A DNA stretch of 35,256 nucleotides from contig JAFZFR010000033.1 in assembly GCA_017555805.1 (NCBI GenBank), forward strand, positions 1 through 35,256. Direction: 5' to 3'. The stretch comes from Alistipes sp. GTDB lineage: Bacteria; Bacteroidota; Bacteroidia; Bacteroidales; Rikenellaceae. The position numbers and the translations under genes are program-made. Position 1 is the first letter of the stretch; each line of letters starts with the position of its first letter. Positions 8,739 through 21,200 of the stretch are shown one piece after another. The notes under the pieces were generated by a model. That model saw only the letters and a list, made by a program, of their open reading frames with translations, did no database searches and was not told the origin of the DNA.

Positions 8739-9386
8739 ATGAATAAATTGATACTTGTAATAGTATCTGTTATATCTTTGTTTTGCGGTTGCGCGAAGCG
8801 AGATAACAAGGCACAAGAGGAGACTCCTGCGCAGGGAGTTGTCAAAGAGAGTGTAGAAGATTGGCAGGCATCTATATTAAGAGACCTTGAGGAATATTAT
8901 AACAGTTGTGAGAAGCGTGTCTATCCTCTGGCTTCGGAAGTTGAGGTGTTGGACAAAAGGCTCAAGAGTCGCCCATATTGGAGAGTTGCAAATTATAAAA
9001 GCGGGCGTGTTGTAGATGACGAGGTTCATTTATATTACAAAGAGGTTCGAGTGGGAGGAGCATCTCGTATGATGATGCATATTAGAGGCGATAGTGTATG
9101 CTACTATGGACTATTTGATGAAGCATCTGCAAGAATGTCGGGAAATGCCCCTATAATTCGCGAATGGCGACGGAGTTCGGATGATATTTTGTTTTGTAGT
9201 GGTGATAGTATAGCGATAGGTTATCTGAAAAAATCGCCAGAAAAAGAACTGAATATATATCAAATATCTGTTTTAGTTCCCGTGACAAAGCAAGAGTGGA
9301 ATTCTTTTCAGCGTGAGCGTGAAAGACTGACAAAGATAGCAGAGGAGACGAATAGGACAATGGCAAATTTAATGGAAGAACAATAA
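8739..9386 (+). CDS. Unknown predicted lipoprotein in the duplicated-end island
   Basis: I do not recognise this 215-residue protein. The N-terminus MNKLILVIVSVISLFCGC is a lipoprotein signal with the lipid-modified Cys at 18 (LFCGC), so it is probably anchored in the outer or inner membrane. The mature part is charged, with a Glu-rich segment to residue 60, a probable beta-rich middle (DDEVHLYYKEVRVGGAS, MMMHIRGDSVCYYGL) and a helical, possibly coiled-coil C-terminus (FQRERERLTKIAEETNRTM). Codon use is more AT-rich than in the flanking synthase and U32 genes, in keeping with transfer. The stop codon overlaps a copy of the M24 gene's leader sequence (9386-9409). Confidence 0.75.
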   Translation: MNKLILVIVSVISLFCGCAKRDNKAQEETPAQGVVKESVEDWQASILRDLEEYYNSCEKRVYPLASEVEVLDKRLKSRPYWRVANYKSGRVVDDEVHLYYKEVRVGGASRMMMHIRGDSVCYYGLFDEASARMSGNAPIIREWRRSSDDILFCSGDSIAIGYLKKSPEKELNIYQISVLVPVTKQEWNSFQRERERLTKIAEETNRTMANLMEEQ

Positions 9387-9409
9387 CTTAAAACTAAATA
9401 ACTATGTTT
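9386..9409 (+). repeat. Near-copy of the M24 aminopeptidase leader and start codon
   Basis: ACTTAAAACTAAATA followed by ACTATGTTT at 9386-9409 equals 11625-11650, immediately upstream of and including the ATG TTT start of the M24 gene, except for a 2-base deletion. Here the ATG at 9404 leads only to a six-codon frame ending in TAA, so it is a stranded start. AT-rich leaders of this style are common in the phylum, so chance similarity is possible. Confidence 0.5.
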
Positions 9410-9473
9410 GACAATGGGCAATAAAAGTTGTTCATCCAATGAAAATGATAGTTATTTATAGAAGTATTTAATA

Positions 9474-10055
9474 ATGAAGAGACTTTTAATTCTGGCACTC
9501 GCCTTATTGCCAACGCTGGGTTGGGGACAGCGTATCGCAGAGAAGATGCAGGAGATGGATGAGCGGATGATATCCCGCGCAGGCCTCTCATTAGAGGAGT
9601 ATTTCTGTGATGCCCAGCCCATACCTCGCAATATAAAGAAGATATTACACTCTGTGGAGTGTTGGAAGGAGAGTTCTAGGTCTTGTGATGTTGTCGATGG
9701 CGTTGTTCGCATTGCAGGTTTAAGAGTTGGAGGGGTTGAGAAAAATACTATCCGTAGATTTACACGAGGCTTCAAGGGCGAATATTACTCGCGCTATTAC
9801 AACTCAGCAGGTTGGCTAAAAGTTCAGGAGGGAGAGTTTCGGTTACATAAGAAAAACTTGCTCTATTACCTCGATGGCGATATTATTTATATACCTCGCA
9901 TCAATCCGAAAAAAGATAAAACGACAGCATATTATAGGCTCACACCTTGTAGGATGAATTTCTCACAGATGAAGCAGCGTATCGCTAACCCTATCATCTC
10001 TAAACCATCCTCGAGAGGTCAATTTGGGAAAAGACACTTAACAACAAAGCCATAG
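9474..10055 (+). CDS. Unknown small exported protein with a borrowed signal peptide
   Basis: I do not recognise this 193-residue protein. Residues 1-19 (MKRLLILALALLPTLGWGQ) are a signal peptide whose DNA matches that of the M28 peptidase (start 6519, opposite strand) at about 51 of 57 bases; similarity stops at the mature boundary. The mature protein has Tyr-rich, basic stretches (EYYSRYYNSAGWLKV, NLLYYLDGDIIYIPR) and no known motif. The C-terminal 20 or so residues look like run-on translation up to the TAG directly before the duplicated synthase tail at 10057, so the original 3' end may be lost. Whether it is functional is uncertain. It is probably co-transcribed with the lipoprotein upstream (87 bases apart). 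Confidence 0.65.
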   Translation: MKRLLILALALLPTLGWGQRIAEKMQEMDERMISRAGLSLEEYFCDAQPIPRNIKKILHSVECWKESSRSCDVVDGVVRIAGLRVGGVEKNTIRRFTRGFKGEYYSRYYNSAGWLKVQEGEFRLHKKNLLYYLDGDIIYIPRINPKKDKTTAYYRLTPCRMNFSQMKQRIANPIISKPSSRGQFGKRHLTTKP

Positions 10056-13080: not shown

Positions 13081-13617
13081 ATGAAGACGCTCTACTTGTT
13101 TCCCACCCTTGAGGAGTCTGCGGTGTTCTGCGACCTCTGCCCCAATTTGCGCGAGCAGGTTGTGGTTGTTGGCGTAGGTATGGCCGAGGCGGGTGCTCGT
13201 GCGGCGCAGGCGATTGCGAGGCGAGAGCCTCAGCGTGTGGTGCTGTGTGGCATTGCGGGGGCGTGCGACCGCAGGGTTGAGGTCGGCGCGGTGGTGCAGG
13301 TCGAGAGCGACAGGGTGGCTGGTCTGCCCGAGAAATATTGCATCGAGTACAGCTCCTCCCTGGTCGAGGGGCTGTGCCGTGTGCAGAGCCTTACGGTGAA
13401 TCGTACGGGCGAGTCGCTGTCTGTAGTGGCGGGCAATATCCCCTGCATCGAGCAGATGGAGGGCGCAGCCGTGGCGGCGGCGTGTGAGGCGCTGGGCGTT
13501 AAGGAGTATTACCACCTGCGCGCCATCTCAAACTATGTTGATGACCCCCGTTCGGCGTGGCGCATCAAGGAGGCTGTCAGCGCCCTCGGCGAGTGGCTTG
13601 CCGCACATAATCTTTAG
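13081..13617 (+). CDS. mqnB: Futalosine hydrolase (menaquinone synthesis)
   Basis: MqnB removes hypoxanthine from futalosine in the alternative (futalosine) route to menaquinone, in the cytoplasm. The 178-residue protein belongs to the nucleoside phosphorylase fold: VVVVGVGMAEAGA near residue 30, VVLCGIAGAC (53-62), the substrate-binding IEQMEGAAVA block and RAISNYVDDP near the end, both typical of MqnB. It is a little shorter than usual (about 200-225). mqnD, another gene of the route, lies 5.4 kb downstream on the same strand, separated by an AT-rich insert gene and a rhamnosidase. The first ATG at 13076 gives only two codons; 13081 is the real start. Confidence 0.87.
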   Translation: MKTLYLFPTLEESAVFCDLCPNLREQVVVVGVGMAEAGARAAQAIARREPQRVVLCGIAGACDRRVEVGAVVQVESDRVAGLPEKYCIEYSSSLVEGLCRVQSLTVNRTGESLSVVAGNIPCIEQMEGAAVAAACEALGVKEYYHLRAISNYVDDPRSAWRIKEAVSALGEWLAAHNL

Positions 13618-13631
13618 TGAGTAAAGATTAT
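13607..13631 (+). other. AT-rich inverted repeat at the mqnB end / insert boundary
   Basis: ATAATCTTTA (13607-13616) and TAAAGATTAT (13622-13631) form a 10-bp perfect stem around GTGAG, spanning the mqnB stop codon (TAG, 13615-13617). Only TT follows, so it is a poor terminator. It marks the sharp change from GC-rich mqnB to the AT-rich gene at 13670 and may be a boundary trace or a weak attenuator. Confidence 0.5.
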
Positions 13632-13669
13632 TTGGGGATTTTGTGTGAAACAAAATAATAAAGTTTGTG

Positions 13670-16384
13670 ATGCAAAAGGTTATAAAGATATCTTCTGAAA
13701 CTTACAAAAAAATTAATAAAAAATCTCTTTTTTTTGTAAGAAAATCATACGGATACGACACTTTACTTAATGAAATAGAGTGGCGACCTACAGATAAGGA
13801 AATAGATATTTGTTTTCCTGCGAAGGAGTTTGGAGAATCAAGTTTGCATTATTGCTTATGTTTGATAGATGGATTCTCTGTCAAGCATGAAGATGCAATT
13901 GGATTGTATGAGATGAGATTTCATGTTGCATCCGCCACAAATAATAGAGATTGTGAAATTATTCTCCAACATTGCGTTTCTCGTAGTTGTGACAAAGAAG
14001 ACAAGTATGCTTTCGTGGAATTACTTTGGCTTTTTGATAAAAGTGATATTTCCTTTAGTGCATTACAAACAGCCGTAGCTTCATATGATTCTCGAACAAT
14101 CCCATTTGTATTGGATGTGTTGAGAGCAATGAGTAGGTGTTTGTCTGTGGCAAAACAAGAGACTATTAAGTCTGTCTTTGAGCAATTTGGCGGTGAATAT
14201 AAAGTGTATATGCCGTCACTTGTTTATGATGCGTTTCAATTGTGCGCAAAATCCAACGATAGCGATGTAAGAGAGTATAATATTTTTGATATTGTAAATG
14301 AAATAGTTGGAGAAACGGAATCTAAATGTCCTACAAGGGAGCAAGTTGATAGTGGTAATAATATATTTCAACTTCTAGAATGGTTACATAATAACAATGC
14401 ATTAAGGGATTATAATTCTTTGATCCCATTCTTTTCTCTAGTGTCAGAACCTATTAGACTTGAAATAGTAAAAAGGTATTTTCACGATGTGAGAATGGGG
14501 AAGACCCGACTAGATATTAAGTTGATAGAGCAATTTAGAAGCAATAAATATGATATATTTATTCGTTGTCGTTATGCTGTAGAAACTCCATCCGAAAGAG
14601 TTGTTTTGACAGTTCCATTTCTATGTGATAGTATACTGACATTGCTCAAATCTAAAGGTCAGTGTTTTCAGACATTTGATGGAATTCTTGATTTTGCAAT
14701 GACTCGTTGTGATAAAAACCATCCAGGTGTGGATTTCAAATTGGAAAGATTGATCCCGGTGTGTAAAGGTGGGGCATCCTATAATAAATTGTTTAAAGGT
14801 TTTGTTGTTTATAAATTAGTATGCAAAATAGATCAAGAACAATTAATAGATGAAACTTTGCTTAAATATATTCGTGAAGAACTTGATCGTATAGGAGTAA
14901 GGGCTCAATACCCAGCTTGTAAATATGATGATGCAACCCCGATTGAAACTGTTTTATGTGAAAAATGTTCGCGTAAAATAATAGAAGGAAATGTAGACTC
15001 AAAAAATAAATGTAAAAATTATATTTATAAAGCCTATAGTGACAAATGGGTTGTAAAAGGAACCCAAGAAAATAAAGAAATTTTAAATAGTTTTTTAACC
15101 GAAAGAATTCAGGGTAACGAGACTCTGTTTGAGGACATGTTAGTTGATGTCGGAATGGTGTCTTTGAAGAATTTTCGCAACTATATCCAAATGTTGCTAT
15201 ATTCTTTCAATGAGGAAAAGAATGATGAATTTGTAATTGAACCGTATAAGACTGTTAATAGAAAATATCAGGCAAGATTGATTGAGCGTTTTTTTAAGAT
15301 TGTCAAAATTAGAGTTTTCCCACAAAAAGATGTGTTTGTTGGACCAAAGTTCGATGTTTTTGGATTTAGGAAGGATCTTATGAGGTCTGTGTCGCCCGCT
15401 CACTATCAAGATCAGCAAATAACAATAATAGAGACTTGTAAAGAAAAGGAAAGAAAAGAAATTTATAATAGAGTTGTTGAGTCGTTAAAAAAAGAGTTTA
15501 ATGCACTCGAGTGTAATGGGTTGTATTTTGAACTACCATATAATAAATTGGTGCTTGATAAAATTGTCAGTCGCTATTATGTGAATACATCATATACACA
15601 TAAAAGCGAAGATTCTTATCTAACATTCTTGGAGTCAAACTCCAATAACGGTTTTTATCAATATTGTGCACCCGAATTAAGCGAAGTAAATAATTCAGCT
15701 ATTAACCTTCCGTTTTTTTGGTGTAGAGGAAAGGAGTGTTTTAAAAATAATCTTGGCTTACAACTTTTAGAAAAAGTTAGAGATTGGCGTTTATATTCAT
15801 TGTATCATTTAACGGAAATTATAGGTTATCCAAAAATACACATTACGCCAGCAGGAAACGAACCCGATCCAATGGTAAGAAGTTTTATTGCGATAACTAA
15901 TAAGGTTGTGCAAAAATTTCGCAGATTGAAATGTCGTTCGTGTGGTCATTTGTTGTTTGTGGATAGAGGCGGTAGTTACAATAGATATAATAATTATTCT
16001 TGCGTCAACCCAATTTGTTTAGAGTATCAGAAGCGAGTTTATTTGAATTTTTGTTATAAGTGTAAATCTGGACTTATTGATTCAAGAGATTCTGCCAAAT
16101 GCCCCAATGGTTGGTATATTTGTCCTTCTTGCTTGTCTTGCTGCGATGATGCACAGTATGATAGACAGAGTCAACTGTATATATTATCCAAAACAGATGT
16201 TCCAGAAAGAATACAACGGATGTTAGGTCGTGGTCATAACGATAAAGGTTTATTCTTTTGTCCAAGATGCGGTACCGGTATTGAGGTAATAGATGATGGT
16301 GGGGAGAAATATTCTAAACCTTGCCCTAAATGTGGAAGCGAATTTAGAATATTTGCTAGAGATTTTAAATTAAAACTAACCTGA
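13670..16384 (+). CDS. Large AT-rich protein of unknown function with C-terminal zinc ribbons
   Basis: I do not recognise this 904-residue soluble protein. No signal peptide, membrane segment, P-loop or known nuclease motif is visible. Residues 1-430 look mostly helical and could be repeat-like. A CEKC pair sits near residue 437. Residues 755-904 hold three zinc-ribbon-like modules: CRSCG ... CVNPIC, CYKC ... CPNGWYICPSC, and CPRCG ... CPKCG. The gene is strikingly AT-rich, full of AAA, ATT and TAT codons, unlike mqnB before it and the rhamnosidase after it. A GTG at 13667 is possible, but the adjacent ATG at 13670 is preferred. It ends one base before the rhamnosidase ATG (TGA-T-ATG), so it sits inside the operon. 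Acquired cargo, possibly defence or nucleic-acid binding, is an inference only. Confidence 0.85.
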   Translation: MQKVIKISSETYKKINKKSLFFVRKSYGYDTLLNEIEWRPTDKEIDICFPAKEFGESSLHYCLCLIDGFSVKHEDAIGLYEMRFHVASATNNRDCEIILQHCVSRSCDKEDKYAFVELLWLFDKSDISFSALQTAVASYDSRTIPFVLDVLRAMSRCLSVAKQETIKSVFEQFGGEYKVYMPSLVYDAFQLCAKSNDSDVREYNIFDIVNEIVGETESKCPTREQVDSGNNIFQLLEWLHNNNALRDYNSLIPFFSLVSEPIRLEIVKRYFHDVRMGKTRLDIKLIEQFRSNKYDIFIRCRYAVETPSERVVLTVPFLCDSILTLLKSKGQCFQTFDGILDFAMTRCDKNHPGVDFKLERLIPVCKGGASYNKLFKGFVVYKLVCKIDQEQLIDETLLKYIREELDRIGVRAQYPACKYDDATPIETVLCEKCSRKIIEGNVDSKNKCKNYIYKAYSDKWVVKGTQENKEILNSFLTERIQGNETLFEDMLVDVGMVSLKNFRNYIQMLLYSFNEEKNDEFVIEPYKTVNRKYQARLIERFFKIVKIRVFPQKDVFVGPKFDVFGFRKDLMRSVSPAHYQDQQITIIETCKEKERKEIYNRVVESLKKEFNALECNGLYFELPYNKLVLDKIVSRYYVNTSYTHKSEDSYLTFLESNSNNGFYQYCAPELSEVNNSAINLPFFWCRGKECFKNNLGLQLLEKVRDWRLYSLYHLTEIIGYPKIHITPAGNEPDPMVRSFIAITNKVVQKFRRLKCRSCGHLLFVDRGGSYNRYNNYSCVNPICLEYQKRVYLNFCYKCKSGLIDSRDSAKCPNGWYICPSCLSCCDDAQYDRQSQLYILSKTDVPERIQRMLGRGHNDKGLFFCPRCGTGIEVIDDGGEKYSKPCPKCGSEFRIFARDFKLKLT

Positions 16385-16385
16385 T

Positions 16386-19064
16386 ATGAAAAAGTCTTTC
16401 CCTTTGATGTTGGTGGCTGCGCTGCTGGCTTGCTTGCAGGCTGTGGCGGCGACTATCGCGCCAATAGACCTGAAGTGTGAATACGAGTCAAGTCCTCTGC
16501 TTGATAAGCAAAACCCTCGTTTTCAGTGGATTAACTCAAACCCCAAACTCAAGCAGGGCGCGCGCCAGACAGCATACCGCATCCGTGTGGCTACCTCTGC
16601 TGATGGTTTCGATAATGCCGTGTGGGACACTGGCAAGGTGCTCTCTTCGGAGTCGGCATTCATTAGCTATGCGGGCGAGCCTCTTCGCTCACGCACCTCT
16701 TACTTCTGGCAGGTGATGGTCTGGGACGAGAAGGGTGAGCCTTCGGCTTGGAGCGAGCCTGCGCAGTGGCATATGGGTATGCTTGCGGAGGATGAGTGGC
16801 AGGGCAAGTGGATTGGCGCACCTTGGCAGGGCGAGGAGTCCTACGATGTGCGTGGCACGCTGGAGTTCGACGCCGCACCGCTTCTGCGCAAGGAGTTTTC
16901 GGTGAAGAAGGGTTTGAAGTCGGCTCGCTACTACGGCACAGGCCTGGGCTACCACGAACTATACCTCAATGGCGAGCGCGTGGGCGAGGATTACCTCTCG
17001 CCAAACCAGACAAACTACACTACGCGACCTCTGCTCAATACGCGCGGCATCGTTGTGACCGACCCATTCGAGGAGTACACCGTTCTGTATCTCTCGCACG
17101 ACTTTACCGATAAGTTGCAGGAGGGCGACAACGCCATCGGTGTGATTCTTGGCGATGGATTCTTCAACATCTCACGCCACTGGGTGCTTGGCTACGGAAC
17201 ACCTCGCTTCATCGGTCAGATTGAGTTGGAGTATGAGGATGGCTCGCGCGAGGTTATCGCCTCTGATGAGAGCTGGCGCGCGGAGCGTAGCGCAATCACC
17301 CGCAACCAGATTTACTACGGCGAGTGCTATGATGCTCGCCTTGAGCACGATGGCTGGAGCACAGCCGCCTACGATGACTCTGCTTGGCAGTCGGCAGTTG
17401 TGAAGAATGCCCCTTGCGGCAAACTTATCCCACAGAATGGCCCTGCAGACCGCATCACCGAGCGCTTCGACCCCGTTGAGTTCGAGAAGCGCGACGACGG
17501 CGTCATCCGCGTAAAATTCCCTGTTGAGGTGTCGGGCTGGGTTGCGCTGAAGAATATCGTTGCGGAGGCTGGTCAGCAGATTTCAATCAAGTACTTGAGC
17601 GAGTCGCCAGGCAACGGCGACAACATCTACATAGCCAGAGGCTCGGGCGATGAGTCTTACCACGCTCGCTTCACCTGGTTTGTATTTTCCGAGGTCGAGA
17701 TTTCGGGTATCGACAACCTCTCGGCAGAGCAGGTTGAGGCACACGCCGTAAACTCCGCTGTGGAGCGCGCGGGCGAGTTCAAGACCTCTAACGAGTTGAT
17801 TAACAAGATTAACGAGATTTGGCAGCGTAGCCAACTTGACAATATGCACGGCTCTATCGCCAGCGACTGCCCTCACCGCGAGCGCTCGGCATATACGGGC
17901 GACGGTCAGGTGGCGTGCGTTACGGTGATGCACAACTTCGCGACGCAGACCTTCTACAACAAGTGGCTTCGCGACATCCGCGGCGCGCAGACCGCCGATG
18001 GTTATGTGCCTAACGGCGCGCCTTGGCAGCCAGGCTGTGGCGGTGGTGTCGGCTGGGGTGCAGCCATCGAGATTATGCCGTGGGAGTTCTATCGTCACTA
18101 CGGCGACATAGAGGTGCTGGAGGCGAACTATGGCGCTATGAGCCGCCATATCGCGTGGATGCAGACCTGGGTCGATGAGCGTGGCATTATGGAGTCACGC
18201 GACCCACAGCACTGGAAGAACTTGGGCGACTGGTTGCCTCCTCGTGCGTTGCCTGCCAATGCGCTGGTGCACACCTTCTTCCTCTGGTACTGCTCCGACA
18301 TCACATCAAAGACGGCGACCCTGCTGGGCAAGAACGACGATGCTTGGCGCTTCGCGCAGTTGCGTGACCGCACCGCCGCGGCGTTCCACAAGACTTTCTA
18401 CGACCCCGCTACGGGCTCTTATGGCAGGCACGGCAGTAATGTGCTTGGTCTTGTGATTGGCGTTCCCGATGATTGCAAGGCGAAGGTTGTTGAGGCACTG
18501 AAGGCAAACATCGCCGAGGTGAACGACCACCTCGACACAGGCATTGTCGGCACTCGTCACCTCTTTGAGGTGCTGTGCGACAACGGCTTGCAGGATTTGG
18601 CATATAAGATTATCAACCAGCGTGACTTCCCATCCTTCGGCTGGTGGATTGAGCAGGGGGCTACCACGACTTGGGAGGCGTGGAATGGCGCAGATTCGCG
18701 CAACCACCCAATGTTCGGCGGCGGTATCGGCTGGTTCTACCGCGACCTCGCGGGTCTGGAGGCTCTCGGCGCGGGCTACTCGTCGTTCCAGGTGCGCCCA
18801 GTGTTGCCCGAGGGTTTGGAGTGGGTTGAATATACCCACCGCACAACCTATGGCGATGTGGCTATCAAGTGGCAGAACAAGGCTGGCAAGTTTACTATGC
18901 AGTGTGATGTGCCCGTAGGCTCACGCGCGATTGTATGGGTGCCATTCGCGGGCGAGAAGCCAAAGGTGAAACTTAACGATAATGTGCGCGCTGTGGGCGT
19001 GCGTGAGGGTTATGCGCTCTATCAGGTTGAGTCGGGAAGATATAATTTTAATTCAAAATTATAA
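16386..19064 (+). CDS. Secreted GH78 alpha-L-rhamnosidase
   Basis: Hydrolyses terminal alpha-L-rhamnose from plant or microbial glycans outside the cytoplasm; 892 residues with a signal peptide (MKKSFPLMLVAALLACLQAVA, cleaved near 22). Order: an N-terminal fibronectin-III-like domain (about 25-130, ending RSRTSYFWQVMVWDEKG), a galactose-binding-like sandwich domain (150-310, with YYGTGLGYHELYLNGERVG), a beta-sandwich, the (alpha/alpha)6 barrel, and a C-terminal beta domain. DCPHRERSAYTGDGQ carries the probable general acid Glu499 with Asp494 and Asp506; TTTWEAWNG carries the probable base Glu764. Its ATG is one base from the stop of the AT-rich gene, and its TAA overlaps the mqnD ATG by one base. 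A carbohydrate enzyme embedded between menaquinone genes is odd. Confidence 0.93.
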   Translation: MKKSFPLMLVAALLACLQAVAATIAPIDLKCEYESSPLLDKQNPRFQWINSNPKLKQGARQTAYRIRVATSADGFDNAVWDTGKVLSSESAFISYAGEPLRSRTSYFWQVMVWDEKGEPSAWSEPAQWHMGMLAEDEWQGKWIGAPWQGEESYDVRGTLEFDAAPLLRKEFSVKKGLKSARYYGTGLGYHELYLNGERVGEDYLSPNQTNYTTRPLLNTRGIVVTDPFEEYTVLYLSHDFTDKLQEGDNAIGVILGDGFFNISRHWVLGYGTPRFIGQIELEYEDGSREVIASDESWRAERSAITRNQIYYGECYDARLEHDGWSTAAYDDSAWQSAVVKNAPCGKLIPQNGPADRITERFDPVEFEKRDDGVIRVKFPVEVSGWVALKNIVAEAGQQISIKYLSESPGNGDNIYIARGSGDESYHARFTWFVFSEVEISGIDNLSAEQVEAHAVNSAVERAGEFKTSNELINKINEIWQRSQLDNMHGSIASDCPHRERSAYTGDGQVACVTVMHNFATQTFYNKWLRDIRGAQTADGYVPNGAPWQPGCGGGVGWGAAIEIMPWEFYRHYGDIEVLEANYGAMSRHIAWMQTWVDERGIMESRDPQHWKNLGDWLPPRALPANALVHTFFLWYCSDITSKTATLLGKNDDAWRFAQLRDRTAAAFHKTFYDPATGSYGRHGSNVLGLVIGVPDDCKAKVVEALKANIAEVNDHLDTGIVGTRHLFEVLCDNGLQDLAYKIINQRDFPSFGWWIEQGATTTWEAWNGADSRNHPMFGGGIGWFYRDLAGLEALGAGYSSFQVRPVLPEGLEWVEYTHRTTYGDVAIKWQNKAGKFTMQCDVPVGSRAIVWVPFAGEKPKVKLNDNVRAVGVREGYALYQVESGRYNFNSKL

Positions 19065-19846
19065 TGGAAAAAGTGCGTTTGGCAATCTCACCCTGCCCCA
19101 ACGACACCTTTATGTTCCACGCCCTGGTGCATGGGCTGGTCGATTGCGAGGGGCTGGCGTTTGAGATTGAGTATCACGATATTGAGGAACTGAATCGCGG
19201 CGCGATAGCTGGCGAGGTGGATATGAGCAAGGTCAGTTGCGCCGTCCTGCCCGCCATCACGAAGGAGTACTCTCTGCTCGATAGCGGAGCGGCGCTCGGC
19301 AGGGGTAACGGACCTCTGCTGGTGCAGCGCAAGGGTTTTCAGGGTGCGCTCAAGAGGGTTGCCGTACCTGGCGAATATACTACGGCGAATGCGCTGGTGT
19401 CGGGGCTCTTTCCGCTGATTGACGAGCGTGTGCCGATGCTCTTCTCGGAGATTGCCGAGGCCGTTGAGCGGGGTGATTTCGATGGTGGCGTGCTTATCCA
19501 CGAGGGTCGCTTTGTCTATGAGCGCCGTAATCTGGAACTCGTTGCCGACCTCGGCGTGGAGTGGGAGCGAATGACCGACCTGCCTCTGCCGCTTGGCGGA
19601 ATCGTGGTGCGTAAGTCACTCGGCGCGGACCTTAAGAGCAAGGTTGAGCGCATCCTGCGCCGCAGCATCGAATACGCCTTCGCCCACCCAATGGCGTCAC
19701 GCGACTATGTCAAGCAGCACGCCCGCGAGTTGGAGGATGATGTCATCGACAAACATATCGCTCTTTTTGTCAATGATTTTTCTTTGTCGCTTGGCCCCGA
19801 CGGCCGCCGCGCAATAAGTTATCTGACGGGCGAGATTTACGAATAG
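19064..19846 (+). CDS. mqnD: 1,4-dihydroxy-6-naphthoate synthase (menaquinone synthesis)
   Basis: MqnD converts cyclic dehypoxanthine futalosine to 1,4-dihydroxy-6-naphthoate in the futalosine route. The 260-residue protein has the periplasmic-binding-protein-like fold and family signatures: LAISPCPNDTFMFHALVHG at the start, the DIEELNRGA and DMSKVSCAV motifs, GRGNGPLLV, and the catalytic-site stretch VLIHEGRFVYE with LPLPLGGI downstream. Its start overlaps the rhamnosidase stop (TAATG), which indicates translational coupling. It ends at a perfect terminator. With mqnB upstream it shows that this organism makes menaquinone by the futalosine pathway. Confidence 0.93.
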   Translation: MEKVRLAISPCPNDTFMFHALVHGLVDCEGLAFEIEYHDIEELNRGAIAGEVDMSKVSCAVLPAITKEYSLLDSGAALGRGNGPLLVQRKGFQGALKRVAVPGEYTTANALVSGLFPLIDERVPMLFSEIAEAVERGDFDGGVLIHEGRFVYERRNLELVADLGVEWERMTDLPLPLGGIVVRKSLGADLKSKVERILRRSIEYAFAHPMASRDYVKQHARELEDDVIDKHIALFVNDFSLSLGPDGRRAISYLTGEIYE

Positions 19847-19895: not shown

Positions 19896-20669
19896 TTATT
19901 GGTCTAATTTTAAAGATAATATTCCATTTTTAGCCTCCTTTGCGAAAATTTCAAACATATTTTCCCACGCATCTTCGCGACCTTTATTGATTGCGTTTAT
20001 TTGTGTGTCAGCCAAACTTTGCGTGTCCATAAAGGTTGTAAAAATAGATATTCTTGCTTCTGCTTTGTCTTTTGAATGGTCTCCACTTTCATCTATTTCC
20101 CCCACTACAGCAGACTGAGCAAAACAAAAACCGTCAGTTATTTTAAATCCTATTTGTGCGTGTGGTCCATATTTTTCTATTCGTCGATTGATCTCCTTTG
20201 TTATTTCAATTGATGTTCTTTCTCCTCTGTTTCTAGAAAAGAAAATACAAGCAATATCGTTGGTGGAAAGGTTTTCATTTTTCAGACATCTTTCTTTGTA
20301 TCTTTCAAGAAAATGGTTTGTGAATGCATCAATAGCCCTAATGGCATAAGGTTTAGACTCAAAATCACGCTGGTATATATCTGTATATCCTTTGATGATT
20401 AGTCTTTTGTGACCATCGTAATCGATGCCAAAGTAATCTTGGGTGGGGGTTTCTATGCGGAAGCGACTTTCTGCATAGAAAAATATGATGTATTCGTTTC
20501 CCGATGATGGAATATTGTATTCATACCACCTCCACGCGGGGAATTTTTTTTCTTTCTTGAACTCTTTGATTGCTTTAGGGTATAGTTGTTCCATTCGCAA
20601 TTCGACTTTCTTTAAATCGGCTGCGAGTTCATAGTATATTTCTTTGTGTGTCGTACATTCGCGTATCAT
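19896..20669 (-). CDS. Unknown AT-rich orphan protein
   Basis: I do not recognise this 257-residue protein, which seems cytoplasmic and soluble. Notable stretches are an N-terminal helical region (LKKVELRMEQLYPKAIKEFK), FPAWRWYEYNI, the run YFGIDYDGHKRLIIKG, and FSRNRGERTSIEITKEINRR followed by YGPHAQIGFKITDG and a conserved-looking FCFAQSAVVGE. The start is set at 20669 (MIRECTTHKE), not at the upstream in-frame Met at 20720, because a good -7 box at 20690-20697 lies between them. Codon use is AT-rich compared with the neighbouring mqnD, pointing to acquisition. It is a single-gene unit sharing the terminator at 19857-19885. Toxin, defence or regulatory roles are all open. Confidence 0.75.
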   Translation of the reverse strand: MIRECTTHKEIYYELAADLKKVELRMEQLYPKAIKEFKKEKKFPAWRWYEYNIPSSGNEYIIFFYAESRFRIETPTQDYFGIDYDGHKRLIIKGYTDIYQRDFESKPYAIRAIDAFTNHFLERYKERCLKNENLSTNDIACIFFSRNRGERTSIEITKEINRRIEKYGPHAQIGFKITDGFCFAQSAVVGEIDESGDHSKDKAEARISIFTTFMDTQSLADTQINAINKGREDAWENMFEIFAKEAKNGILSLKLDQ

Positions 20670-20689
20670 ATAATGGAATGGGTTTTTAA

Positions 20690-20720
20690 CAAAAATAATA
20701 AAATATAGAAAAAGAGTCAA
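20690..20720 (-). promoter_or_regulatory. Promoter of the AT-rich orphan gene
   Basis: On the minus strand TATTTTTG (20697-20690) fits TAnnTTTG, with TTGAC (20720-20716) 18 bp upstream. Transcription would begin near 20684, which supports the start codon at 20669. Confidence 0.6.
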
Positions 20721-21122: not shown

Positions 21123-21127
21123 TTCAG

Positions 21128-21200
21128 TACCCCCTCAGGGGCTCGAACCCTGGACCCCAACATTAAGAGTGTCGTGCTCTACCAACTGAGCTAAAGAGGC
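21128..21200 (-). tRNA. tRNA-Lys, anticodon CTT
   Basis: The minus strand folds as a complete 73-base cloverleaf. The acceptor GCCTCTT pairs with AGGGGGT (several G-U pairs). The D-arm is GCTC-AGTTGGTA-GAGC. The anticodon stem CGACA/TGTTG has loop CTCTTAA, giving anticodon CTT (codon AAG). The T-arm is CAGGG-TTCGAGC-CCCTG, and the discriminator base is A. CCA is not encoded. It has its own promoter and terminator. Confidence 0.97.

What the first reader, a model, noticed from the sequence alone, without database searches (positions are those of the whole stretch)
13670..16384. Large AT-rich zinc-ribbon protein gene inserted seamlessly in a menaquinone operon
A 904-residue protein with three C-terminal zinc-ribbon-like modules and no family I recognise. 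Its base composition is clearly more AT-rich than mqnB upstream and the rhamnosidase downstream, yet it ends one base before the next ATG, so it uses host transcription. A large single gene of foreign character parked between housekeeping genes is a pattern seen for one-gene defence systems and other cargo. That role is inference; the composition, position and cysteine pairs are seen directly.
Basis: partly seen in the sequence, partly recalled or inferred. Interest (0 to 1): 0.75.

Follow-up and report, generated by a model that had tools for sequence, protein, structure and literature searches.

The report
Stray defence-linked zinc protein gene
A bacterium has picked up, between two of its everyday metabolic genes, a foreign gene for a large zinc-module protein whose relatives sit inside anti-virus (restriction) operons, including some in E. 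coli, but whose job is unknown.

Summary
An intact 904-codon gene (33% GC, GC3 25%) sits between mqnB and a rhamnosidase gene (GC3 70-75%). It is a foreign insertion: in 29 of 29 genus relatives examined (of 65 with an mqnB match) rhamnosidase or mqnD follows mqnB instead, and it is the only full-length copy in 268 family genomes. Its last codons are the host's rhamnosidase leader.

It is not an orphan. Two full-length homologues (39-41% identical) each start 1 base after hsdR in Prevotella type I restriction operons. Its C-terminal Cys-rich module defines a wider family; I found no curated model for the module. Several members add a cold-shock domain and a HARP-like segment. One lies between hsdS and hsdR in Klebsiella plasmids and E. 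coli (265 of 5426 genomes match, 198 over 80% of the query). Others abut BREX pglZ, follow Wadjet jetD, or lie near Septu. Of 19 loci, 11 have a defence-type neighbour (hand-picked scan, no control).

Best reading: an accessory or effector of restriction-type defence, here a horizontally acquired solo copy read from a host operon.

The parts
13670..16384 (+). Zinc-module protein gene, 904 aa, horizontally acquired
14345..14788 (+). Middle module, residues 226-373, best conserved part outside the C-terminus; weakly and colinearly similar to the segment before the HARP-like region in larger members
   Evidence: score 27.4, E 0.0025, hhalign probability only 12%; against at most 17.7 for 3 other segments and 15.1 for 8 column shuffles
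15659..16354 (+). C-terminal Cys-rich module, residues 664-895, that defines the wider family
   Evidence: C755, C758, C778, C795, C798, D804, R806, C818, C821 the same in 20 of 20 aligned members (excerpts anchored on the D-[AS]-R pattern) and in 9 of 9 of an unanchored alignment
13607..13631 (+). Perfect 10-bp inverted repeat with 5-nt loop over the mqnB stop codon, at the 5' junction of the insert; only copy in the held genome at up to 3 mismatches
16370..16385 (+). Ancestral rhamnosidase leader, now encoding the last residues and stop of the inserted gene
   Evidence: comparison with the empty site in L037
13081..13617 (+). mqnB (futalosine hydrolase-like), 5' host flank
16386..19064 (+). 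Alpha-L-rhamnosidase, 3' host flank
19064..19846 (+). mqnD-like (VitK2_biosynth), next gene of the host operon

Best explanation
The gene is a horizontally acquired, solo copy of a protein that belongs to type I restriction-modification operons in Prevotella, and more widely to a defence-linked family built on a Cys-rich, probably multi-zinc, C-terminal module. Shown: the insertion, the homology and the operon contexts. Inferred: the module, with the cold-shock and HARP-like parts in larger members, binds nucleic acid, and the protein acts as an accessory or effector of restriction-type defence, either helping the HsdR or BREX machinery to handle invading DNA or acting on nucleic acid when that machinery is engaged or blocked. 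In this genome it is read from the M24-mqnB-rhamnosidase-mqnD transcript and, without HsdR, would have to act alone.
For: Full-length homologues start 1 base after hsdR in two Prevotella, where HsdM and HsdR are 90% and 85% identical but the zinc protein 58% and HsdS 51%. The window protein groups with these two at support 1.0 in a tree of the module. The module also lies between hsdS and hsdR in a Klebsiella plasmid and in two opened E. coli genomes (265 of 5426 genomes match by DNA); there it stays 98-99% identical, HsdR 97-98% and HsdM 98% (one pair), while HsdS falls to 39-67%. One member abuts pglZ, with brxL next; one follows jetC-jetD by 0.3 kb, one follows ptuA-ptuB with one small frame between. 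CSD and HARP matches in other members. Empty site, leader junction and composition.
Against: No activity has been tested. No CSD or HARP is detectable in the window clade. HARP matches (4 of 15 other members scanned) are all under Pfam's cut-off, and CSD matches in all but one. 6 of 19 loci, the window among them, showed neither a defence neighbour nor an integrase in what I looked at; neighbours were chosen by eye, those of L062-L064 were only read by eye, and there is no control. No HsdR in this genome, so the solo copy could be decaying or inactive. The R-M origin of the clade rests on two genomes.
Confidence: 0.55

Rival explanations
1. It is an hsd-linked guard effector that works like PrrC: silent beside an intact restriction enzyme, and killing or stalling the cell when a phage blocks it.
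For: Same slot as recalled for PrrC (hsdM-hsdS-prrC-hsdR): the opened Klebsiella and E. coli genes lie between hsdS and hsdR. Cold-shock domain suggests RNA or ssDNA binding. Conserved D804 and R806 between Cys pairs could be catalytic.
Against: No Walker A motif and no known nuclease or toxin domain in the window protein; a solo copy without HsdR would lack its keeper; the conserved residues may be structural.
Confidence: 0.2
2. It is a defence protein that works alone; restriction operons are one of several places where it has landed.
For: Solo or two-gene copies among housekeeping genes: the window, L061, L062, L063/L064, L087; varied defence partners rather than one.
Against: Within the window's own clade both relatives are in the same hsd operon, so this branch looks R-M-bound; no phage test.
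Confidence: 0.25
3. It is a stranded passenger: a fragment of a restriction operon captured by illegitimate recombination, kept by chance and on the way to decay.
For: C-terminus runs into the host leader; no HsdR in the genome; little codon amelioration implies recent arrival; full-length in 1 of 268 family genomes.
Against: 904 codons open at 33% GC, and the residues conserved in the module are kept.
Confidence: 0.2
4. It is a host regulatory or housekeeping protein with zinc ribbons.
For: Placed in a metabolic operon.
Against: Absent at this place from 29 of 29 relatives examined; foreign codon usage; no housekeeping family or PDB match.
Confidence: 0.03

Closest known systems
Unnamed gene after hsdR in Prevotella type I restriction operons (WP_237827813.1 on pE2-28; P6B1 chromosome)
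   Same: Full-length homology, 39-41% identity, same Cys module
   Different: There it is the gene after hsdR; here it is solo between mqnB and a rhamnosidase gene, with an altered C-terminal tail
'Cold shock domain-containing protein' between hsdS and hsdR in Klebsiella and E. coli
   Same: C-terminal Cys module with an ID[SA]R-type motif and IC..C..CC; restriction operon
   Different: 615-620 aa, has an N-terminal CSD, shares only the module with the window protein; its annotated frame ends before the last CxxC pairs
HARP domain (PF07443; link to SMARCAL1 recalled)
   Same: Sub-threshold match before the Cys module in 4 of 15 other members scanned
   Different: Not found in the window clade; no helicase attached
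PrrC and other hsd-linked effectors (recalled, not from a call)
   Same: Position inside an hsd operon
   Different: No P-loop motif and no nuclease domain found in the window protein
CoCoNuT and TOTE conflict systems (passages only of PMC11090510 and PMC12458937)
   Same: Combine cold-shock domains with helical regions, CoCoNuTs also with zinc ribbons
   Different: Described there with McrB-type GTPases, or with TPR-CSD fusions plus TBP; I did not search the neighbours for such partners

Membership tests
Type I restriction operon zinc-module protein (Prevotella clade) | Full-length homology to the gene beside hsdR | tested here: met
   38-41% identity over the length; clade support 1.0 in a tree of the module
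Type I restriction operon zinc-module protein (Prevotella clade) | Adjacent hsdM/hsdS/hsdR | tested here: not met
   No HsdR in the genome by protein or HSDR_N search (HSDR_N found in 9 of 14 controls); one weak N6_Mtase match on another contig; the neighbouring genes are an M24 peptidase, mqnB, rhamnosidase and mqnD. Genome 83% complete
Wider zinc-module family | Conserved Cys pairs and D-[SA]-R of the C-terminal module | tested here: met
   Shared by 20 of 20 in an alignment anchored on that motif and 9 of 9 in an unanchored one; hhalign E 6.5e-31 over 222 columns to a five-member group, three of which have a CSD match
Wider zinc-module family | N-terminal cold-shock domain of larger members | tested here: not met
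   No Pfam CSD; profile comparison of residues 1-210 E 0.049 over 12 columns. Not universal in the family either: 6 of 8 members scanned have it
Wider zinc-module family | HARP-like segment before the module | tested here: not met
   Residues 376-670 against the HARP region E 0.1
Known PADLOC defence protein | Match to a PADLOC model | tested here: not met
   0 families at E up to 10 for the window protein. Of 6 other members scanned, one (L087) matches only the PADLOC model CSD_V through its cold-shock domain; the pE2-28 member matches none
Anti-phage defence system | Reduces phage infection | not testable with these tools
   Needs a plaque assay
PrrC-type guard effector | P-loop ATPase with anticodon nuclease domain (recalled) | tested here: not met
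   No Walker A motif, no such Pfam domain
HARP / SMARCAL1-type annealing helicase | SNF2 ATPase domain (recalled) | tested here: not met
   No ATPase domain in the Pfam scan

The most novel reading that the evidence does not exclude
An unnamed, widespread protein family, marked by a multi-zinc module with a conserved D-[SA]-R, is a plug-in component shared by unrelated DNA-targeting defence systems (type I restriction, BREX, and neighbours of Wadjet and Septu) and can also break free: it spreads as recombinase-less one- or two-gene cassettes that land between housekeeping genes with their 3' end at the stop codon, and then acts as a stand-alone defence.
Probability: 0.3. Interest if true: 0.75.

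Novelty: new variant of a known kind. Interest (0 to 1): 0.57.

Why it matters
Type I restriction operons are usually thought of as three-gene systems (general knowledge), yet here a large protein with a shared module rides with them in two Prevotella, in Klebsiella plasmids and in 4-5% of complete E. coli genomes, with no curated model of the module found and no solved structure found by sequence. Because an E. coli version exists, its part in restriction can be tested directly in laboratory strains. The window shows the same kind of gene outside such an operon, inside a metabolic one, with both junctions readable.

Tried and rejected
Curated families: only sub-threshold zinc-ribbon matches for the window protein in Pfam and NCBIfam, weak unnamed matches in PHROGs, nothing in PADLOC. 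NCBIfam and PHROGs were tried with the window protein only; other members were scanned in Pfam and some in PADLOC, where one matched CSD_V through its cold-shock domain. PDB: for the protein, ribosomal S27ae-type zinc ribbons at E 0.31 or worse; for the module profile, mostly unrelated zinc-finger and zinc-ribbon proteins, best E 0.0073; for the G840 member, cold-shock proteins. Phage records: no match for the window protein or the G611 member. Viral contigs: nothing confirmed in three scans. HsdR remnant upstream of the insert: translated in three frames and compared by eye with the HsdR C-termini, no resemblance. tRNA-targeted insertion: the only tRNA found in the window is a tRNA-Lys at 21127-21200, 4.7 kb away. 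Promoter or terminator at the insert: none by simple scan, although the 75-nt stretch 13595-13669 with its two hairpins folds better than 200 of 200 shuffles, z -3.2. CSD or HARP hidden in the window protein: not supported. Azaca link (ZacB match of the third gene downstream of the zinc gene on pE2-28): not pursued.

Literature, ten searches, all used: Azaca names (noise, 8 papers, listing only); type I restriction + cold shock domain + YecA, 0; cold shock domain + defense islands, 3 (passages of two read); cold shock + hsdR + hsdS + accessory, 8, none on this by the listing; cold shock + BREX + pglZ, 0; TOTE; CSD-containing protein + type I restriction, 1 (its one passage, PMC8287167, names a CSD protein in an ICE that also carries a type I system, no function); HARP domain + restriction-modification, 0. 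So 'not in print' means only: not found by these searches of an open-licence library.

Rows dropped before counts: marginal hits G500, G431, G1053 and G1101 came as short loci but were not studied; the Klebsiella and two E. coli loci were counted as one locus; the 19 loci counted are the window, L036, L047, the enterobacterial one, L059-L066 and L081-L087. In G939 (L086) the matched stretch holds two stop codons; I used only the 1182-residue open frame, so the end of its module may be missing.

Full report
Observation. The gene at 13670-16384 (+) is open for 904 codons. Its GC is 0.332 and GC3 0.254, whereas mqnB, the rhamnosidase gene and mqnD have GC3 0.749, 0.698 and 0.686; its codon usage diverges most from the rest among 25 ORFs of the window. 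Low GC is also seen in relatives (0.35 in P6B1; 0.30-0.39 in those). The stop ends at 16384 and the next ATG is at 16386. No curated family claims it: sub-threshold zinc-ribbon matches in Pfam and NCBIfam, weak unnamed ones in PHROGs, none in PADLOC.

The insertion. The host order is M24 peptidase, mqnB, [gene], rhamnosidase, mqnD. Of 101 genus genomes searched, 66 (own included) have an mqnB match. I examined the 29 best of the other 65. The gene is in none; after mqnB comes rhamnosidase in 11 of 29 and mqnD in 18 of 29, and the own genome rings as positive control. Longer stretches of the ten nearest agree (8 rhamnosidase, 2 mqnD). In two of these ten the gap holds a short membrane-protein-like frame of 64 or 109 residues. 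In the nearest relative (L037, G045) mqnB and rhamnosidase are 25 bases apart, against 52 bases from mqnB to the insert's ATG in the window. The relative's TTAAAACTAACCTAATATG, which ends in the rhamnosidase ATG, survives in the window as TTAAAACTAACCTGATATG, where it now encodes the end and stop of the inserted protein. Both flanks are thus syntenic with relatives, which argues against an assembly chimera. At the 5' junction a perfect 10-bp inverted repeat covers the mqnB stop (13607-13631), the only copy in the held genome; the 75-nt stretch around it folds better than all of 200 shuffles. I do not know whether it is a trace of the event or a transcription signal.

Distribution. Among 268 genomes of the family, 8 match, and only the window's genome has the full-length gene; the other seven share the C-terminal module. 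An evenly drawn sample of the order gives 3 of 393, one of them marginal; with the module profile the phylum gives 9 of 395, one marginal, and the class 5 of 395, three marginal. All these counts include the own genome.

Homologues in restriction operons. The only plasmid hit of the window protein is pE2-28 of Prevotella sp. E2-28, 38% identical over 98% of the query. There the gene starts 1 base after hsdR in an operon AAA ATPase, hypothetical, hsdM, hsdS, hsdR, zinc protein. The genome-contig scan, which used two short peptide patterns, gave one locus, Prevotella sp. P6B1, with the same order and spacing. Between the two Prevotella, HsdM is 90%, HsdR 85%, the ATPase 74%, the zinc protein 58%, HsdS 51% and the hypothetical 30% identical. 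The window protein is 39-41% identical to them, and the three group with support 1.0 in a module tree; window plus P6B1 has 0.65. Parsimony, on two genomes, makes an R-M-linked ancestor likely. The window's genome has no HsdR match and one weak N6_Mtase match, with the caveat of 83% completeness.

The wider family. The module also closes proteins of 474 to 1262 residues. Of eight members scanned, six match Pfam CSD, one over the cut-off; one of them matches CspA in the PDB at E 0.0013. A long region follows, which I take to be helical (no prediction was run), and in 4 of 15 members a HARP match below the cut-off. Across 20 aligned members C755, C758, C778, C795, C798, D804, R806, C818 and C821 do not change. 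I cut those excerpts by a D-[AS]-R pattern followed by C..C, so part of this is by construction; the same residues are invariant in nine sequences aligned without it. The 20 include two enterobacterial copies and three near-identical cassettes. Profile comparison links the window clade to a five-member group of larger proteins at E 6.5e-31 over the module. A second, colinear match joins residues 226-373 to the segment before HARP: score 27.4, E 0.0025, but hhalign probability only 12%; three other segments reach at most 17.7 and eight column shuffles 15.1. CSD and HARP are not detectable in the window clade.

Defence context. In the Klebsiella plasmid I opened the order is hsdM, hsdS, YecA-like, CSD-zinc protein, hsdR, SprT; 129 Klebsiella plasmid records hold the protein. 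By DNA, 265 of 5426 complete E. coli genomes match, 198 over at least 80% of the query; the two I opened show the same order beside integrases, one with an IS-truncated hsdM and with the anti-phage gene hhe further on. Across these three loci HsdS varies (39-67%) while the zinc protein is 98-99%, HsdR 97-98%, HsdM 98% (one pair) and YecA 93-97% identical, so the zinc protein goes with the constant core rather than with target specificity. In the Prevotella pair, by contrast, it varies nearly as much as HsdS. In G939 the gene abuts pglZ, with brxL next; in G937 it follows jetC-jetD by 0.3 kb; in G725 it follows ptuA-ptuB with one small frame between, and abiL lies downstream; in G611 it neighbours an OLD/AriA-like ATPase and a Fic protein, in G840 AbiEi lies 3.7 kb off. 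Weaker: G777 (Schlafen-type helicase with AbiO/Nhi matches, 4.8 kb off), G962 (PD-T7-4-like, adjacent), G132 (PDC-S11, 4.6 kb off). In all, 11 of 19 loci have a defence-type neighbour; two more (L059, L065) have a tyrosine integrase; six (window, L061, L062, L063, L064, L087) showed neither. I chose neighbours by eye, scanned only some (L062-L064 none) and have no background rate, so this is a tally, not a test.

Mobility. In the genus a two-gene unit (145 aa + 570 aa) of about 2.5 kb is 91-94% identical between three genomes: in two it sits between genes that I read as radA and rseP, in the third at an unrelated place, and in comparisons with the third the shared DNA ends 3 bases after the stop. 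The window insert also ends at its stop. I saw no recombinase gene inside either unit. This parallel is suggestive only; I have not shown how they move.

Mechanism. What is shown: an intact gene foreign to its site; homology to a component of type I restriction operons; recurrent company of DNA-targeting defence. What is inferred: recent arrival, zinc binding, nucleic-acid binding by the module (helped by CSD and HARP-like parts in larger members) and a role as accessory or effector. The slot between hsdS and hsdR recalls PrrC (from memory), which makes a guard-type effector a serious rival, but no P-loop or known nuclease was found. The solo state argues for either stand-alone action or a stranded passenger. 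Structure prediction, which would have helped most, was switched off.

Verdict. Foreign and defence-linked: well supported. Function: open. The find that deserves follow-up is the unannotated family itself, testable in E. coli.

Noticed in passing
window 19896-20720 (-): A second AT-rich gene (274 aa, GC 0.35, GC3 0.31) right after mqnD, not found in the 10 relatives' stretches searched, only a weak DUF3800 match, no PADLOC match; a tRNA-Lys lies 0.4 kb further.
   Followed up: partly
L062:5180-7685, L063:7474-9980, L064:9072-11549: Two-gene cassette (145 aa + 570 aa zinc-module protein), 91-94% identical, at two different chromosomal sites in three species of the genus, no recombinase seen; shared DNA ends 3 bases after the stop codon.
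   Followed up: partly
L036:17760-23889: Downstream of the zinc gene on pE2-28: a PLD-like 868-aa protein with a ZacB (Azaca) match, a C39-like peptidase and a Sir2 protein, with unannotated genes between.
   Followed up: no
L067:9942-10625, and L068, L069: A YecA-like protein gene overlaps the start of the CSD-zinc gene in the three enterobacterial hsd operons opened.
   Followed up: no
L040:7168 and L043:7217: Two genus relatives carry a short membrane-protein-like frame (64 and 109 aa) in the gap after mqnB, so the interval is variable.
   Followed up: partly
window 8739-10055: Two further genes of lower GC (0.41, 0.44; GC3 0.34, 0.46) upstream of the U32 peptidase gene.
   Followed up: no
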